64,000 nt of DNA, taken from Thermoanaerobaculia bacterium. GTDB lineage: Bacteria; Acidobacteriota; Thermoanaerobaculia; UBA5066. A model generated the notes under the pieces. It saw nothing but the letters and a program-made list of their open reading frames with translations. It was not told where the DNA came from and ran no database searches. Numbering within the stretch: position 1 is the stretch's first letter; each line of letters begins with the position of its first letter. This document shows positions 1 through 7,500 of this stretch, piece after piece. The DNA lies in contig JAJVIN010000005.1 of the NCBI GenBank assembly GCA_022071945.1, forward strand, positions 152,879 through 216,878, given 5' to 3'. Position numbers and translations under genes: made by a program.

Positions 1-1902
1 TTCCTCCGAGGAAACGGACAGAGATGTCACCGTCACATCATATCCCGGAGCCGCAATGAAAAAGCACCCTGTACCAACAGTCGGGGACGTGTTGAAGGAA
101 ACCCGTCCGTCGGCACCTGTATGCCGCTGATCGCTATTCCTTCCAGGCACGCCGGTGAACATGCGCACGGGAATGCCTGCCAGTCCGCCTCCGGCCGACC
201 CGACGAGCTTCAGCCTGATCTGGCCTTTTGGCTTCAGGACGAGCTTCACCGGCTCGGCGTCCCCGTCTTTCGGAAGATTCACAGTCACATCGTCGCTCGC
301 CACTCTCCCGGCGGCGGCCGCAAGGGTGTAACTTCCAGGCTCGAGACCGCCTACCTGAAACCTGCCGCCGGCCTCCAACTGTTGACTGCTCTTCTCACCT
401 GTACTCCTGTTCGTCACGTACAGCACTCCTCTTTCCGCGGGAGAGCCGTCTTCGTTGACCACCTCACCGTCGATCAGCCTTCCGCTCAGGAAGATGCTGA
501 ATTCGCCTTGTCCATTCGGGTTCCTTCGAATCTCGATGTCCAGCTTTCTTCGCACGGGGGGAACATCCGCGACAATATCCACGGGCCACGTCCCCAATCG
601 CGGCAGGAACCCCTCGACCTTGCCATCTTCATCCGACAACAAGGAAACGGAAGGCACGCCATGTTCCCGACCGAACACGACCTTCCCCTTCAGCGGCTGC
701 CCGCTCTGTTTGACGGTCCCATGGACGCGCTCGGCATCGAGCGTAATCACCTGGTCGGCCTGGCCGCCGGGCAGCACCCTGGACTCAGAGTCTCCCCACC
801 ACACATCCCCAGCACTCGTGTGAACCCTCACACGGTATTGAGCCTGTGCCTTGAGCCCCTCGCGCTCCCATCTACCTCCAGCCGAAGCCGGGGAGTTGGC
901 GACGACATCGGCCTTGCCGCTTCCGAGTAACTCGAGCAAGGAGACACGCCAGGGCTTTCCAGTGGGATCCTGTGGAGGGATCAACTGGAGCGAAAGCCGC
1001 ACGGGCTTCGAGAGAACAAGCGGAGACTTGAGGCGCGCCTCCGAGTTCTCCAACACCATCACAGCTTGCTTTGCCGGGACGAACCCGTCTTGTTCGGCAA
1101 CCACCTCCCACTGTCCTGGTGGAATGACATCCAACTGAAAGAAACCGCGGCCGTCGACGCTCGTGCTCGGCAGCGCGGGAGCAGTGGCGGGCAGTTTCGG
1201 ACTCGACGGGAGAGGCTGAAGTCGAACGCGACAACTGCCCGGCTTCGGCGCGCCCGCGATGGTGGACGACACGGTACCGACCAGGGATGCTCCTCTCTTG
1301 AACTCGAAGGAGCCGATCTTCAGAGGTGACTGGTTACTGGCGACCTGTCGCCAAAGATAGACGGCCACGAAGCCCTTCGACCGAAAGCTCAGATCCAGCG
1401 TTCCAGCGGGCACCACGCATCTGAACTCTCCGGTCTCGCCTATCGGGCAGTGCGCCTCTCCTTCGACGGATTCCCTCTCCCGAAGAGAGGACTCGGCGTG
1501 GTACCTGGCGGTCAGTTCCGGTGGAGCCGTGTTCAGCCCCTGAAACGAGGCACGGCCATCGATCCGTGCGGCCTGCCAGACATCGAGGAACCCCCTCTCC
1601 ACCGGCATCCAGCTGTCTCCGCCCCACCCCGCGGCCTCTACCCTCGCTTCCCATGCCCGGTCCGAGGGCAGATCCAGCTCGACCCAGCATTCGGCGTCTT
1701 TCGGGCACGAGAAATCCTTACGGAGCAGATCGCCCAGTCGATTCGCGGGCTGGGCTATTACAGTTCCCTCAACCGGCAGTTGAGAGAGCTTCCTTACGAT
1801 CTCGAGGCGCCGCGGTTCCGCCGCCAAGGGGGAGCCAACGAAGGTCACGAGAATCTGGAAGGCTAAAACACGATTCGGCCAGGTCCCATTGGCGGCTGCC
1901 AT
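1..1902 (-). CDS. Secreted/surface protein with carboxypeptidase-regulatory-like (CarboxypepD_reg/SpaA-type) beta-sandwich repeats, 3' end truncated by window edge
   Basis: Manual reverse-strand translation: ATG at 1902, open for 634 codons to position 1 (MAAANGTWPNRVLAFQILVTFVGSPLAAEPRRLEIV...GRLIDGEVVNEDGSPAERGVLYVTNRSTGEKSSQQLEAGGRFQVGGLEPGSYTLAAAAGRVASDDVTVNL...). Signal-like N-terminus and typical G.V.D..G.P..G..V...F.V.GL.PG.Y.L motifs. Absent from ORF track because it has no stop in the window. Confidence 0.85.
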   Translation of the reverse strand, partial: MAAANGTWPNRVLAFQILVTFVGSPLAAEPRRLEIVRKLSQLPVEGTVIAQPANRLGDLLRKDFSCPKDAECWVELDLPSDRAWEARVEAAGWGGDSWMPVERGFLDVWQAARIDGRASFQGLNTAPPELTARYHAESSLRERESVEGEAHCPIGETGEFRCVVPAGTLDLSFRSKGFVAVYLWRQVASNQSPLKIGSFEFKRGASLVGTVSSTIAGAPKPGSCRVRLQPLPSSPKLPATAPALPSTSVDGRGFFQLDVIPPGQWEVVAEQDGFVPAKQAVMVLENSEARLKSPLVLSKPVRLSLQLIPPQDPTGKPWRVSLLELLGSGKADVVANSPASAGGRWEREGLKAQAQYRVRVHTSAGDVWWGDSESRVLPGGQADQVITLDAERVHGTVKQSGQPLKGKVVFGREHGVPSVSLLSDEDGKVEGFLPRLGTWPVDIVADVPPVRRKLDIEIRRNPNGQGEFSIFLSGRLIDGEVVNEDGSPAERGVLYVTNRSTGEKSSQQLEAGGRFQVGGLEPGSYTLAAAAGRVASDDVTVNLPKDGDAEPVKLVLKPKGQIRLKLVGSAGGGLAGIPVRMFTGVPGRNSDQRHTGADGRVSFNTSPTVGTGCFFIAAPGYDVTVTSLSVSSEE

Positions 1903-1917
1903 TGTGCCTGCAGACTC

Positions 1918-2271
1918 TCAATTGTACGTGCAGGTACCGGCGTCAACGCAAGTCTGACCATAGTCTTCGTAGTCGCACCCGCAGCCTCCGTCCCAATCTG
2001 AGTAGGGACAAGTGGGGTAGCAGAAACCGTTGTCGTTGCAGGACTCGCTGCAAATCGTACAGTTCGTGACGCACGTCACGCCACCACCCCCTCCTCCAGG
2101 CGGATCCGGAATCTGGTGGCGAACCTCGTTTGTGGTGTGAGAGGGAGGCTGAACCCGCTTCCCGGGGCCGGAAACCCGATCACCGCCAAGGGCAAGATTC
2201 GCCGCGACTAGACTGAACGCTATCAACAGCGTTTGTGTGATTGACAGAGTAGATTGGGCCCGTTTCGTCAC
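1918..2271 (-). CDS. Small secreted Cys-rich protein (117 aa) with hydrophobic N-terminus, poly-Gly linker and 10 Cys in the C-terminal half
   Basis: GTG start at 2271 with GGAGG at 2278-2282. Sequence VTCVTNCTICSESCNDNGFCYPTCPYSDWDGGCGCDYEDYGQTCVDAGTCTYN. 15 bp upstream of the next gene, same strand. Confidence 0.75.
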   Translation of the reverse strand: MTKRAQSTLSITQTLLIAFSLVAANLALGGDRVSGPGKRVQPPSHTTNEVRHQIPDPPGGGGGGVTCVTNCTICSESCNDNGFCYPTCPYSDWDGGCGCDYEDYGQTCVDAGTCTYN

Positions 2272-2291
2272 TGAGCACCTCCGAATGGCGA

Positions 2292-2320
2292 ACGCTAGCA
2301 GGGGGGGGGGGCTTTGTCAA
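2292..2320 (-). promoter_or_regulatory. Putative sigma70-type promoter with C11 homopolymer in the spacer
   Basis: Minus strand reads TTGACA (2320-2315) - AAGCCCCCCCCCCCTGC (17 nt) - TAGCGT (2297-2292), with TGC giving an extended -10. SD and GTG start follow directly. Confidence 0.6.
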
Positions 2321-2390: not shown

Positions 2391-3944
2391 TCAGTGTCGC
2401 AACTCGAAGACCCGGGCCGTGCGAGCCTCGACCGGAATCGTTAGCCGGCCCTTCGCCCGCTCGATGGGAGACTGAGACTGGGTGGGCTCCAGAATCTCTT
2501 CCTCGAGCTGGAACGTCTTGCCTTCCAGGCCGAGGTCGGCGAACTCGAGTGGCACGAGGTGCCGCGAGCGGCTCCGGTTGAGCACGACGAGAACCGTCTC
2601 CTGGTCGAATGTCCGGGCGTAGACGATGGTTCCCGCCTTGGCGCCGAGGAACGTGAAGGAGCCGCGGCGCAGCGCGACGCTCTTTCTTCGGAGCGCGATG
2701 GCGGCCTTGAAGAAGTCGCGCATCGAGAGGTCCCAGCGAGATTGGTCCCAGGGGAAGGCGCCCCGGCACCAGGGGTCGCGGCGGCCCACCATTCCGATTT
2801 CGTCGCCGTAGTAGATGCTGGGCACGCCAGGGGACGTCATCTGCAAGAGCACGCCCAGCTGGAGGGCCGACCGGTCGCCTCCCGAGCACGTCAGGAACCT
2901 CGGCGTGTCGTGGCTGCCGAGGAGGTTGAGCTGCGAGTGGACGATCTCTGGCGGGTAGAGAGTCTGGAGCCGCTTGAAGGCCTTCACGAACTCGGGGGCC
3001 GAGAGAGTCCGCACGGTCCTCAGGCCGTTGGCCTCATGAACGACGTCGATGGCGGCGGGATCCGGGATGAAGCCGATGGCGGCCTTGGCGAACAGGTAAT
3101 TCGTGACGGCGTCGAACTGGTCGCCCGCAAGCCACCGCCGGCCGTCCTCCCAGATCTCGCCGATGATGAAGGCGTCTGGCCTCACGCGCTTGACCCTCTG
3201 CCTGAACTCGCGCCAGAACGAGTCGTCGTCGATCTCGTGTGGAACGTCGAGCCGCCACCCGTCGCTGCCGAACTTGATCCAGTTCTCGGCGATTCGCATG
3301 ATGTACTCGCGAACCTCGGGCGCCGACGTATTGAGTTTCGGGAGCGCCGGGAGACTCCACCAGCCCCGGTAGCCGATCGTCTCGAACGGCCCCGCCGCGT
3401 AGATGTCGCCCGCGGGGTAGGCATCGAGCGAGTGCCCCTCGGCCAGCCGCTCCCGGTCGACGTGGAACCAGTTGATGTAGGGAGAGTCGAGGCCGTTCTC
3501 GAGGATGTGGTGGAAGGCGAAGAACCCGCGGCCGGTGTGGTTGAAGACCCCGTCGAGAACGACCCGGATGCCGCGCCGGTGAGCCTCGTCGATGAGCTCA
3601 CGGAGGGCCTGGTTTCCACCGAGGAGGGGGTCGATGGTCTCGTAGTCGTAGGTGTGATACCTGTGGTTGGCGGGCGACGAGAACACGGGAGTCATGTAGA
3701 TCGCCGTCGCGCCGAGGTCCTGGATGTAATCGAGGTGCTCGGCGATCCCGAAGAGGTCCCCGCCCTTGAATCCGAAGGCCGTGACCGGAGAGTCCCAGCT
3801 CTCGAAGGGCCCCGGGGCGAAAAGCCTCCGGCTCCGGCAGAAGCGGTCGGGAAAGATCTGGTAGAAGACGGCGTCCTTCACCCACGAGGGCGTCATCGTG
3901 TCCGAATCGAGTTGAGGGAGCCAGGTTTCGGCGTTGACCTTCAT
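2391..3944 (-). CDS. Alpha-amylase family (GH13) glycoside hydrolase, neopullulanase/cyclomaltodextrinase-like
   Basis: Motifs AIYMTPVFSSPANHRYHTYDY, GIRVVLDGVFNHTG, DGWRLDVPHEID, IIGEIWED, LLGSHDTPRF: the GH13 conserved regions. Confidence 0.93.
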   Translation of the reverse strand: MKVNAETWLPQLDSDTMTPSWVKDAVFYQIFPDRFCRSRRLFAPGPFESWDSPVTAFGFKGGDLFGIAEHLDYIQDLGATAIYMTPVFSSPANHRYHTYDYETIDPLLGGNQALRELIDEAHRRGIRVVLDGVFNHTGRGFFAFHHILENGLDSPYINWFHVDRERLAEGHSLDAYPAGDIYAAGPFETIGYRGWWSLPALPKLNTSAPEVREYIMRIAENWIKFGSDGWRLDVPHEIDDDSFWREFRQRVKRVRPDAFIIGEIWEDGRRWLAGDQFDAVTNYLFAKAAIGFIPDPAAIDVVHEANGLRTVRTLSAPEFVKAFKRLQTLYPPEIVHSQLNLLGSHDTPRFLTCSGGDRSALQLGVLLQMTSPGVPSIYYGDEIGMVGRRDPWCRGAFPWDQSRWDLSMRDFFKAAIALRRKSVALRRGSFTFLGAKAGTIVYARTFDQETVLVVLNRSRSRHLVPLEFADLGLEGKTFQLEEEILEPTQSQSPIERAKGRLTIPVEARTARVFELRH

Positions 3945-4281: not shown

Positions 4282-7200
4282 ATGTCGACAGGAAACAGAA
4301 GCCTCGTGAGTTCCATCGCGCTCGCCGTCCTTGTGTGCTTGACTGGCCCTGCCGGGGCGCTGGAGCCCCCGTCCGGCGGATCCCCGGGTGTGGCCACCGC
4401 CGCGAACGATCTGCGGCAAGTCGACCGCGATCTCGTCCGGCTCGGAGATTGGATTTCGGAGGTGGAGCGGTCGGGTTCCGCCGCACCGCCGGGACTCGAG
4501 TCGGATATCGCGAGCGTCCGGCCTCGCATCCGGCACGCCGTTTCCTTGCTGAAGGGGCTCCACTGGAGCGAGATCAGGACTGTTCTCGAGCAGGTCACGG
4601 ACCTGCATGGAAGAATGGCTCTCCTCGAGGACCGCCTGAAGAAGGCCGGGAGCCCGAGACCTTTCAGGCCTCCGGTCCGGCAGCCTTCCGCGAGAGCAGA
4701 AGGCTCGGGGGCGATCGCCGGCAGAATCACCGACTCAGTGACGGGCGCTCCCGTCGCGGGTGTCGTCGTCTTTGCGGGGTGGTGGGACTCCGCCGCCACG
4801 ACAAACGCGACGGGCGACTACCTGATCGAGGGCTTGCAGGCCGGGAGCTACGCGGTCTTCACCGACAATGAACTCGGCTATGTGGACGAGCTTTTCGACG
4901 ACCTCCCCTGCCAGAACGGCTGCTACCCGTCTGGAGGCTCTCTCGTCGCCGTCACCGATGGATTCGTGACGACCGGCGTCAACTTCGGGCTCGAAAGGTT
5001 CGGCTCGCTCTCGGGAAGCGTGACCGACAGTGCCACGAGCCAGCCGATCTCCGGCGTCAGCCTCCAACTCTACAACCAGTCCGGGAGCTACTGGGCATCT
5101 GCCTCGAGCGGCTCAGCGGGCACCTATGCATTCTCGGCGCTGCCCCCCGGGACCTACTACCTCAAGACCTACAGCTCGCGCTATTTCGACCAGCTCTACG
5201 ACGGCATTCCCTGCGAGGGAAGCAATGCCTGCCAGGTGACGAGCGGCATCCCGATCGCCGTCAGTCCCGGAGAGGCCCGGACGGGTGTCAACTTCTCACT
5301 CCAGCTCGGAGCGACCATCAAGGGAAGAGTGACCGCGGCGGCGACCGGGCAGCCTGTGGCGGGAACCAACGTCACCTTGACGAGGGGCGACGGAAGCCAT
5401 GCAGGCAGCACCAGCACAGGCCCCACGGGCTCCTACGCCTTCGACGGGCTTTCGGCAGGCACTTACTTCGCCGTCGCCTCAGGCTACTCGAACTACGCGG
5501 ATGTGCTTTACAGCGGGATCCTCTGCGAGCCCTCCTGTAACGTCACATCCGGCACTCCCATCCCGGCGGCCCTCGGACAGGTGACCAGCGGCATCGACTT
5601 CGCCCTGCCCCGGTTCGGAGCCTTCCAGGGAAGGGTGACGGACGTCGCGACAGGTTTTCCCGTGTCGAACGCGACCATCTACACGTACAGATCCAGTGGA
5701 ACCCTTGTGGACTACTCGGACTACGTGGACTCGGACGGCGGCTACACGTCGGGCGGTCTCCTGTCCGGGAACTACTTTGCCGTCGCCATGAGTCCAACGC
5801 ACCTGGACGAGTCTTTCGACGATCATCCCTGTCAACCGGCCTGCGATCCCGTCACGGGAACGAGCATCCCCGTCACCCTCGACTCCACCAGTTACGGAAT
5901 CGACTTCGCCCTCGATCTCGGAGGTGGCGTCGTCGGAAGGGTGACCGCCGCATCCAGCGGTCTCCCTCTCGCCAATCTGACGGTCGATCTGTTCGATGCG
6001 GGAGGAGCCTGGCTGAAGGGGGACACCAGCAACACCCAGGGCGACTTCACCTTCACGGACCTCGTCCCTGGAACCTACTTTGCCCGCGCAAGCCGTGATT
6101 CCTCCAGCATCTACATGAGGCAGCTCTTCAACGGAATCCCCTGCGAACCCTCCTGCACGGTCACGACGGGTACCCCGATCCCGGTCACCAAGGGATCGGC
6201 GACACGGGGCGTCAACTTCGCCCTTGCGAGATTCGGAAGCCTCTCTGGAGTCGTGACGGATGCCCGCACGGGGCTTCCGCTCACAAACCGTCTCGTGAAT
6301 GTCCACGACGCCCTCGGCAGTTACGTCCGCTCCGCGTTCACGGCGGAAGACGGGACGTTTACCGTGTATGGCCTCCTTCCCGGCACCTACTTCGCCTCCG
6401 CGGCTGCCTCCGGTTACATCTCGCAGCTCTTCAACACCCTCTCGTGCGCGACGCCGTGCACCGTGACCGCCGGCACGCCGATCCCCGTCCAGATCGGAAT
6501 GGACACTCCGGGAATCAACTTCGCCCTCGTGCCCTACGGGCTGATCACGGGCACGCTCACGGATGCCACGACCGGAGCAGATCTCGGATACGCGAGTCTG
6601 ACGCTCCACGACGCCGGCGGCAACGTCGTCGCCCGGAGCTACAGCGGCGCGGACGGCGTCTACATCTTCGGCGGGCTGGCGACCGGGACTTACTACCTCT
6701 CGACGCAGGTCTCCTCCGGCTACGTCAACTCCCTTTATCACGATCTCGATTGCCAGCCCTCTTGCGACGTCCTCTTCGGCACGCCGATCGCCGCGACGAT
6801 CGGCTCCCTCACCTCAGGTATCGACATCAAGCTCCGGAAGCCCTTCTTCGCCGACGTGAGTCTCGACCACTGGGCGCGGAAGCACATCGAGAGCGCCTAC
6901 ATCGCTGGCGTGACCGCGGGCTGCGCCACGAGCCCGCTTTCGTTCTGCCCGAACGTGAAGGTCTCGCGCTGGCAGATGGCCGTCCTCCTCGCTCGTGCCA
7001 TCGCGGGCTCGGACGCCGCGGTCCCCTCATCGGGCTTCGTCCCGGCCGGCGGCCCGTACAACTGCGCGCCAGGGGGCGCCAGCTTGTTCCCCTACGACGT
7101 GCCTCCCACGGACAGCGGCTGCCGGCACATCCACTACATCTATAGCATGGGCATTACGTCAGGCTGTGGAGACTTCTCGTTCTGTCCCGCGAACGAGATC

Positions 7201-7500
7201 ACACGCTCGGAAACGGCCGTCTTCTTCGCGCGGATGCTGGCTGGATCCGATTCCGCCGTTCCCGTCTCGGGAACCGTTCCGTCTGCCGGGACGTACAGCT
7301 GCACTCCTGGCGGAGCATCGCTCTTCCCCGCCGACGTGCCGCCCACCGACAGTGCCTGCCGGCACATCCACTACATCTATGGCGAAGGCGTGACACTCGG
7401 GTGCGCACCCGGCGCCTTCTGCCCCCTCTCCACTCTTCCGAGGGAACAGATGGCGGCGTTCCTCGCCCGCGTTTTCAACCTGACGCGCTACAACTTCTAG
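4282..7500 (+). CDS. Large surface protein: seven ~105-aa CarboxypepD_reg-like repeats plus C-terminal SLH domains
   Basis: Signal peptide-like N-terminus. Repeats of the form G.(V/I)TD..TG.P(V/I)....L....G....GTY.F..L..GTYF......Y...L(Y/F)..(I/L)PC...C.VT.GTPI.V. C-terminus FADVSLDHWARKHIESAYIAGVTAGC...ITRSETAVFFARML...LPREQMAAFLARVF (SLH). Confidence 0.9.
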   Translation: MSTGNRSLVSSIALAVLVCLTGPAGALEPPSGGSPGVATAANDLRQVDRDLVRLGDWISEVERSGSAAPPGLESDIASVRPRIRHAVSLLKGLHWSEIRTVLEQVTDLHGRMALLEDRLKKAGSPRPFRPPVRQPSARAEGSGAIAGRITDSVTGAPVAGVVVFAGWWDSAATTNATGDYLIEGLQAGSYAVFTDNELGYVDELFDDLPCQNGCYPSGGSLVAVTDGFVTTGVNFGLERFGSLSGSVTDSATSQPISGVSLQLYNQSGSYWASASSGSAGTYAFSALPPGTYYLKTYSSRYFDQLYDGIPCEGSNACQVTSGIPIAVSPGEARTGVNFSLQLGATIKGRVTAAATGQPVAGTNVTLTRGDGSHAGSTSTGPTGSYAFDGLSAGTYFAVASGYSNYADVLYSGILCEPSCNVTSGTPIPAALGQVTSGIDFALPRFGAFQGRVTDVATGFPVSNATIYTYRSSGTLVDYSDYVDSDGGYTSGGLLSGNYFAVAMSPTHLDESFDDHPCQPACDPVTGTSIPVTLDSTSYGIDFALDLGGGVVGRVTAASSGLPLANLTVDLFDAGGAWLKGDTSNTQGDFTFTDLVPGTYFARASRDSSSIYMRQLFNGIPCEPSCTVTTGTPIPVTKGSATRGVNFALARFGSLSGVVTDARTGLPLTNRLVNVHDALGSYVRSAFTAEDGTFTVYGLLPGTYFASAAASGYISQLFNTLSCATPCTVTAGTPIPVQIGMDTPGINFALVPYGLITGTLTDATTGADLGYASLTLHDAGGNVVARSYSGADGVYIFGGLATGTYYLSTQVSSGYVNSLYHDLDCQPSCDVLFGTPIAATIGSLTSGIDIKLRKPFFADVSLDHWARKHIESAYIAGVTAGCATSPLSFCPNVKVSRWQMAVLLARAIAGSDAAVPSSGFVPAGGPYNCAPGGASLFPYDVPPTDSGCRHIHYIYSMGITSGCGDFSFCPANEITRSETAVFFARMLAGSDSAVPVSGTVPSAGTYSCTPGGASLFPADVPPTDSACRHIHYIYGEGVTLGCAPGAFCPLSTLPREQMAAFLARVFNLTRYNF
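4708..6840 (+). repeat. Seven degenerate ~105-aa (about 315-bp) tandem beta-sandwich repeats within the SLH protein
   Basis: Repeat starts GAIAGRITDSVTG, GSLSGSVTDSATS, ATIKGRVTAAATG, GAFQGRVTDVATG, GGVVGRVTAASSG, GSLSGVVTDARTG, GLITGTLTDATTG, each ending with a paired-Cys (PC-x3-4-C) segment. Confidence 0.85.

What the first reader, a model, noticed from the sequence alone, without database searches (positions are those of the whole stretch)
2271..2320. Putative phase-variable promoter: C11 tract inside the -35/-10 spacer
On the minus strand the sequence reads TTGACA-AAG-C11-TGC-TAGCGT, followed by GGAGG and a GTG start. The -35 is a perfect consensus and the spacer is exactly 17 bp at the present tract length. 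TGC supplies an extended -10 and most of the spacer is a homopolymer prone to slippage. Neisseria porA/opc promoters are known to switch expression this way. Here it would switch a Cys-rich secreted protein and a large surface protein. The weak -10 (TAGCGT) means a 1-bp change could matter strongly.
Basis: partly seen in the sequence, partly recalled or inferred. Interest (0 to 1): 0.82.

Follow-up and report, generated by a model that had tools for sequence, protein, structure and literature searches.

The report
Slippery on/off promoter in Acidobacteriota
A run of eleven Cs sits inside the promoter of a two-gene unit for exported proteins, and because the same arrangement recurs at exported-protein genes in this bacterium and across its phylum, it is very probably a random on/off switch of a kind known mainly from pathogens, here in little-studied environmental bacteria.

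Summary
It is the only TTGACA-N17-TANNNT in 64 kb (0.02 expected) and the only C/G run longer than 7. In this genome TTGACA-N16-18-TANNNT is the housekeeping promoter (44 sites versus 5 reversed). The tract belongs to a pattern: all five non-coding C/G runs of 10 or more in the 6.2-Mb genome lie 5' of exported-protein genes, including a related two-gene unit with G11 instead of C11. Across the class (inferred: Thermoanaerobaculia, Acidobacteriota), TTGAC-(G/C)9+-TANNNT occurs 24 times against 0 reversed-pattern matches, spacers 12-22 (mode 17); 18 of 19 callable first genes look exported, against 6 of 22 at tract-free promoters. Related loci keep a tract but swap G for C and change its length. 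This strongly supports a slippage-driven phase-variable promoter working like Neisseria porA/opc. Length variation within one species and its effect on transcription could not be tested. The mechanism is known; the lineage and the cassette (small Cys-rich exported protein plus large exported partner) appear undescribed.

The parts
2315..2320 (-). -35 hexamer TTGACA
   Evidence: sequence; same -35 in 44 own-genome promoter-like sites versus 5 reversed-pattern matches
2298..2314 (-). 17-bp spacer AAG-C11-TGC
   Evidence: sequence; 17 is the commonest spacer in this genome (24 of 44)
2301..2311 (-). C11 homopolymer, proposed slippage site
   Evidence: comparable tracts at the promoters of exported-protein genes
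2298..2300 (-). TGC, extended -10 (TGn)
   Evidence: sequence; also present at the related own-genome locus on contig C12
2292..2297 (-). -10 hexamer TAGCGT
   Evidence: sequence; TAGNNT is the commonest -10 class of this genome
2284..2286 (-). expected transcription start (about 6-8 nt after the -10)
   Evidence: inference from the promoter position; not measured
2278..2282 (-). Shine-Dalgarno GGAGG, 6 nt before the start codon
   Evidence: sequence
1918..2271 (-). gene 1: 117-aa exported Cys-rich protein (10 Cys, Gly stretch), unnamed family
   Evidence: no Pfam or NCBIfam match
1..1902 (-). gene 2 (continues beyond the window; 737 aa in all): exported CarboxypepD_reg-domain protein
   Evidence: (full length in L343:6571-8781); related pairs on own contigs C35 and C12
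2391..3944 (-). neighbour: alpha-amylase-family gene, same strand, ends 70 nt upstream of the -35; read-through from it is possible

Best explanation
The element is the promoter of a two-gene unit (117-aa Cys-rich exported protein, then a 737-aa exported CarboxypepD_reg protein), recognised by the housekeeping sigma factor. Slipped-strand mispairing in C11 changes the -35/-10 spacing by 1 bp per event. C11 (17 bp) should be strongest, C10 and C12 (16 and 18 bp) weaker, and C8-C9 or C13 and longer close to off, so a clonal population holds a mixture of high, low and silent cells. The locus is one of about five such candidates in this genome, all 5' of exported-protein genes. Shown: the sequence architecture, its agreement with the genome's own promoter consensus, the non-random placement of homopolymers at this kind of promoter, and the change of tract base and length between related loci. 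Inferred: length variation within one species, the graded effect on transcription, co-transcription of the two genes, and the benefit (variable surface or secreted products under phage, predator or competitor pressure).
For: Own genome: TTGACA-N14-20-TANNNT 44 sites versus 5 reversed, spacer mode 17. All five non-coding C/G runs of 10 or more lie 5' of exported-protein genes, three of them with TTGAC and TANNNT at promoter spacing (chance for three of six about 2e-8 or less). Class: 24 tract-in-spacer sites versus 0 reversed in 151 genomes; without the -10, 36 versus 4. Phylum: 32 versus 3 in 396 genomes. First genes exported in 18 of 19 versus 6 of 22 at tract-free promoters. Related loci: C11, G11, G12, G10, G14, C11, G14, G14; three homologous subtilase genes with C11, C12 and C15, spacers 17, 20 and 22. 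A related own pair has the promoter without a tract (L070), so the tract is not needed for the promoter as such.
Against: No reads or second strain of this species could be examined, so length variation here is not shown. Assembled tract lengths can be wrong by a base or more. The comparison is between species. Two of the five own-genome tracts lack a clear -35 (C4:97698 has only a TTGCCC-like one, C19 none). Most relatives of the large protein have no tract upstream.
Confidence: 0.82

Rival explanations
1. A real but static promoter: the homopolymer is a fixed spacer feature (stiff or G-rich DNA, or a protein-binding site) that sets promoter strength without being selected for slippage.
For: The promoter architecture is well supported and length variation within a species is not shown. 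At the current length the spacer is at the optimum of 17.
Against: A structural or binding site should keep its base, position and length, but related loci swap G for C, shift the tract within the spacer and range from 9 to 15 or more, with spacers of 14, 20 and 22. Tract promoters concentrate at exported-protein genes, as expected of contingency loci.
Confidence: 0.12
2. A neutral expansion: homopolymers grow by mutation in spacers because the spacer is free of constraint, with no selected switching.
For: Spacers are weakly constrained in sequence, and C/G runs do occur elsewhere in the genome.
Against: Tracts should then appear at housekeeping promoters too. Of the 44 TTGACA promoter-like sites only two carry a tract (this locus and C36), both before exported proteins; class-wide 18 of 19 first genes look exported versus 6 of 22.
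Confidence: 0.04
3. Chance or assembly artefact: a C run of wrong length, or a chance run next to a chance -35.
For: Homopolymer lengths are error-prone in assemblies, and some tract loci in related genomes lie near contig ends. The C11 alone is not rare by composition (0.25 expected per window).
Against: The combination is not a chance event: 24 versus 0 in the class, 32 versus 3 in the phylum, in independent assemblies. An error of a base would not remove the arrangement.
Confidence: 0.02

Closest known systems
Neisseria meningitidis porA promoter (van der Ende 1995, pmid 7730280; title read in the reference list of PMC5084427)
   Same: A homopolymer between -35 and -10; its length sets the spacing and so the expression of an exported protein (title of the paper; the poly-G detail is from general knowledge).
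   Different: Length variation and its effect were measured there; not here. Different phylum, different product (porin).
Neisseria meningitidis opc promoter (Sarkari 1994, pmid 7984102; title read in PMC5084427)
   Same: Poly-cytidine in the promoter of a surface protein; size variation alters expression.
   Different: Measured there. Product is an outer-membrane adhesin; here a Cys-rich protein and a CarboxypepD_reg protein.
Bordetella fim2/fim3/fimX C-stretch (PMC1891110)
   Same: C tract in the promoter region of exported-protein genes, with length polymorphism (10 to 18) that changes transcription.
   Different: [quoted passage not shown] here a full -35 consensus is present, so no activator need be assumed.
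Neisseria nadA promoter (PMC2791445, title and abstract)
   Same: Repeat-length changes in non-coding DNA alter transcription of an adhesin.
   Different: Acts through a repressor (NadR) with operators flanking the repeat, not through the core spacer.

Membership tests
Homopolymer-spacer phase-variable promoter (porA/opc type) | Homopolymer lies between -35 and -10 | tested here: met
   C11 at 2311-2301 between TTGACA and TAGCGT
Homopolymer-spacer phase-variable promoter (porA/opc type) | The -35 and -10 are those of a promoter used in the organism | tested here: met
   44 versus 5 sites, spacer mode 17, before housekeeping genes; transcription itself not measured
Homopolymer-spacer phase-variable promoter (porA/opc type) | Controls a surface or secreted product | tested here: met
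   Signal-peptide-like N-termini in both genes; a hydropathy rule, not an export assay
Homopolymer-spacer phase-variable promoter (porA/opc type) | Tract length differs between related loci | tested here: met
   9 to 15 and more, G or C, spacers 12 to 22; between species and between related genes only
Homopolymer-spacer phase-variable promoter (porA/opc type) | Tract length varies within one species or clone | not testable with these tools
   No reads and no second genome of this species or genus were available
Homopolymer-spacer phase-variable promoter (porA/opc type) | Transcription depends on tract length | not testable with these tools
   Needs transcription-start mapping and reporter fusions
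Bordetella fim-type C-stretch promoter | Activator-binding region upstream of the tract in place of a -35 | tested here: not met
   A perfect -35 TTGACA directly precedes the tract; an extra activator is not excluded

The most novel reading that the evidence does not exclude
Across Acidobacteriota a set of slippage promoters is devoted to an undescribed exported cassette: a small Cys-rich exported protein followed by a large partner (CarboxypepD_reg-rich, a 6-bladed beta-propeller, or a redoxin-like protein). The population would randomly switch a secreted peptide or surface system. A resemblance to small-peptide plus beta-propeller gene pairs of Bacteroidota is from memory and untested.
Probability: 0.35. 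Interest if true: 0.75.

Novelty: new member of a known kind. Interest (0 to 1): 0.62.

Why it matters
Phase variation by homopolymer slippage has been studied mainly in host-adapted pathogens. A set of such promoters in environmental Acidobacteriota, with many more candidate sites in unrelated uncultured bacteria, suggests that random switching of exported proteins is common outside animal hosts, and it gives a simple sequence signature by which metagenome reads can test this directly. It also points to an unnamed family of small Cys-rich exported proteins with large partners.

Tried and rejected
The generic sigma-70 scan misses the site because the -10 is not TATAAT-like. Pfam and NCBIfam give nothing for the Cys-rich protein. 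Some class hits are probably chance or not promoters of exported genes: L109 (IlvE-like aminotransferase), L082, L117, L118, L119, L123; in the broader pattern L183, L186, L187, L189 and L190 look coding or unrelated. The class scan of the large-protein family shows that a tract is a feature of a minority of its members (8 of 39), so the tract does not define the family. Papers on phase variation in Acidobacteriota: none relevant found. Two paper searches failed on term syntax, one of them rerun in another form. Structure prediction was not run: it would not bear on the promoter.

Full report
Observation. The minus strand at 2320-2269 reads TTGACA-AAG-C11-TGC-TAGCGT-TCGCCATTC-GGAGG-TGCTCA-GTG. 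TTGACA-N17-TANNNT occurs once in the window against 0.02 expected. The C11 alone is a mild outlier (0.25 expected), although no other C/G run in the window exceeds 7.

Is it a promoter in this organism? A search of the whole genome (6.17 Mb, 69 contigs) for TTGACA-N14-20-TANNNT gives 44 sites against 5 for the reversed pattern. Spacers are 15 (1), 16 (10), 17 (24), 18 (7) and 20 (2), and the third base of the -10 is G in 21 of 44. First genes downstream of tract-free sites include recognisable DnaK, Hsp20, Clp, GroES and HU sequences (names from the N-terminal sequences, my reading), and one locus holds a tRNA-Met close to the site. So TTGACA-17-TAGNNT is the ordinary housekeeping promoter, and TAGCGT is not exceptional.

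What does it drive? A 117-aa protein with a signal-peptide-like N-terminus, a glycine stretch and ten cysteines, in no Pfam or NCBIfam family, followed after 15 nt by a 737-aa exported protein with CarboxypepD_reg domains. An alpha-amylase gene on the same strand (2391-3944) ends 70 nt upstream of the -35, so some read-through transcription cannot be excluded. Two further own-genome loci carry related pairs: C35 (L070; large proteins 49% identical), with TTGACA-17-TACGCT and no tract, and C12 (L071; 30% identical), with TTGACT-C-G11-CCGTGC-TAGCGT, spacer 18. The small proteins share C-x2-C, a later G-x-C-x-C and mostly a final G-x-C-x-Y.

Homopolymers in this genome. There are about 15 C/G runs of 9 or more. 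Of the six of 10 or more, one (C20, contig C66) lies in Pro/Ala-rich, apparently coding DNA. The other five are this locus; C12 (G11); C36 (TTGACA-G10-AGGGATC-TAGGCT, spacer 17, 400 nt upstream of a large exported protein); C4:97698 (C15, then TAGCTT, GGAGG and a 365-aa exported Gly/Cys-containing protein, with only a TTGCCC-like -35); and C19 (G11, then TAGCTT and an exported RHS-repeat protein with an SLH domain, without a clear -35). For three of six tracts to have TTGAC and TANNNT at the right places by chance is about 2e-8 to 5e-10 under simple composition models.

Class and phylum. In 151 genomes of the class, TTGAC-N1-7-G9-N0-9-TANNNT has 15 matches and the C version 9, with no match of either reversed pattern. 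Dropping the -10 gives 36 distinct sites against 4. Spacers peak at 17 (8 of 24), with a second group at 20 (6) and some at 14 (3). By a simple hydropathy rule, 18 of 19 callable first genes are exported, against 6 of 22 behind tract-free promoters of the own genome (p = 1.6e-5). Caveats: I picked the first gene by its ribosome-binding site partly by eye; L111 was counted from its sequence although the script's rule missed it; five sites without a callable gene were left out; and the control set comes from one genome. In 396 genomes of the phylum there are 32 distinct sites against 3, again often before small Cys-rich exported proteins. One relative, G009, matches a public Thermoanaerobaculia MAG contig in length and match position (JAGOBQ010000389.1, L248; G009:C320), which places the window in that class of Acidobacteriota; this is an inference.

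Variation between related loci. Among 39 protein-selected relatives of the large protein, 8 have TTGAC followed within a few bases by a C/G tract upstream: C11, G11, G12, G10, G14 (with a second G19 tract), C11, G14, G14 (some upstream stretches are truncated). The base changes between G and C while the arrangement is kept. Three homologous subtilase genes in one genus have C11, C12 and C15, spacers 17, 20 and 22. This is what length-variable tracts would leave, but it is not variation within a species.

Mechanism. Slippage changes the spacer by 1-bp steps around the 17-bp optimum. This is established for Neisseria porA and opc (paper titles in PMC5084427) and, in another form, for Bordetella fim (PMC1891110). 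I give 0.82 to a functional phase-variable promoter. A static promoter with a structural tract is the main rival (0.12).

Novelty. The kind of switch is known. I found no report of it in Acidobacteriota (an open-access library only). The cassette of a small Cys-rich exported protein plus a large partner has partners of several types (CarboxypepD_reg, DUF5128 6-bladed beta-propeller, AhpC/TSA) and deserves its own study.

Noticed in passing
L349, L356, L346, L111-L115, L350-L353: A recurrent cassette behind tract promoters: a small exported Cys-rich protein, then a large exported partner (CarboxypepD_reg-rich, DUF5128 6-bladed beta-propeller, or AhpC/TSA-like). No Pfam family for the small proteins.
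   Followed up: partly
L171 (G009:C203): Two long G tracts (G14 and G19) upstream of one unit, each followed by a CCGG-type hairpin and T run just before the ribosome-binding site; looks like a terminator or attenuator beside the tract.
   Followed up: no
L078:2-5275:- (own genome, contig C19): Exported RHS-repeat protein with an SLH domain behind a G11 tract and TAGCTT, but without a clear -35 at the usual spacing.
   Followed up: no
L345, L364 and G198:C172:330-361: One Acidobacteriota genome holds three near-identical copies of a G9/G10 tract promoter (TTGACAATTGA-G9/10) with similar flanks and no obvious nearby gene; perhaps a repeat family.
   Followed up: no
L226, L251, L274 (one Bacilli MAG, CANRAT01): Three promoters TTGACAYGTAG-Gn-CGTGGTAGAAT with differing G-tract lengths, before ORFs whose N-termini read like type IV pilins (GFTLVEL).
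   Followed up: no
window 4282-7500: 1072-aa exported protein with seven CarboxypepD_reg matches and an SLH domain, divergent from the amylase gene next to the finding.
   Followed up: no
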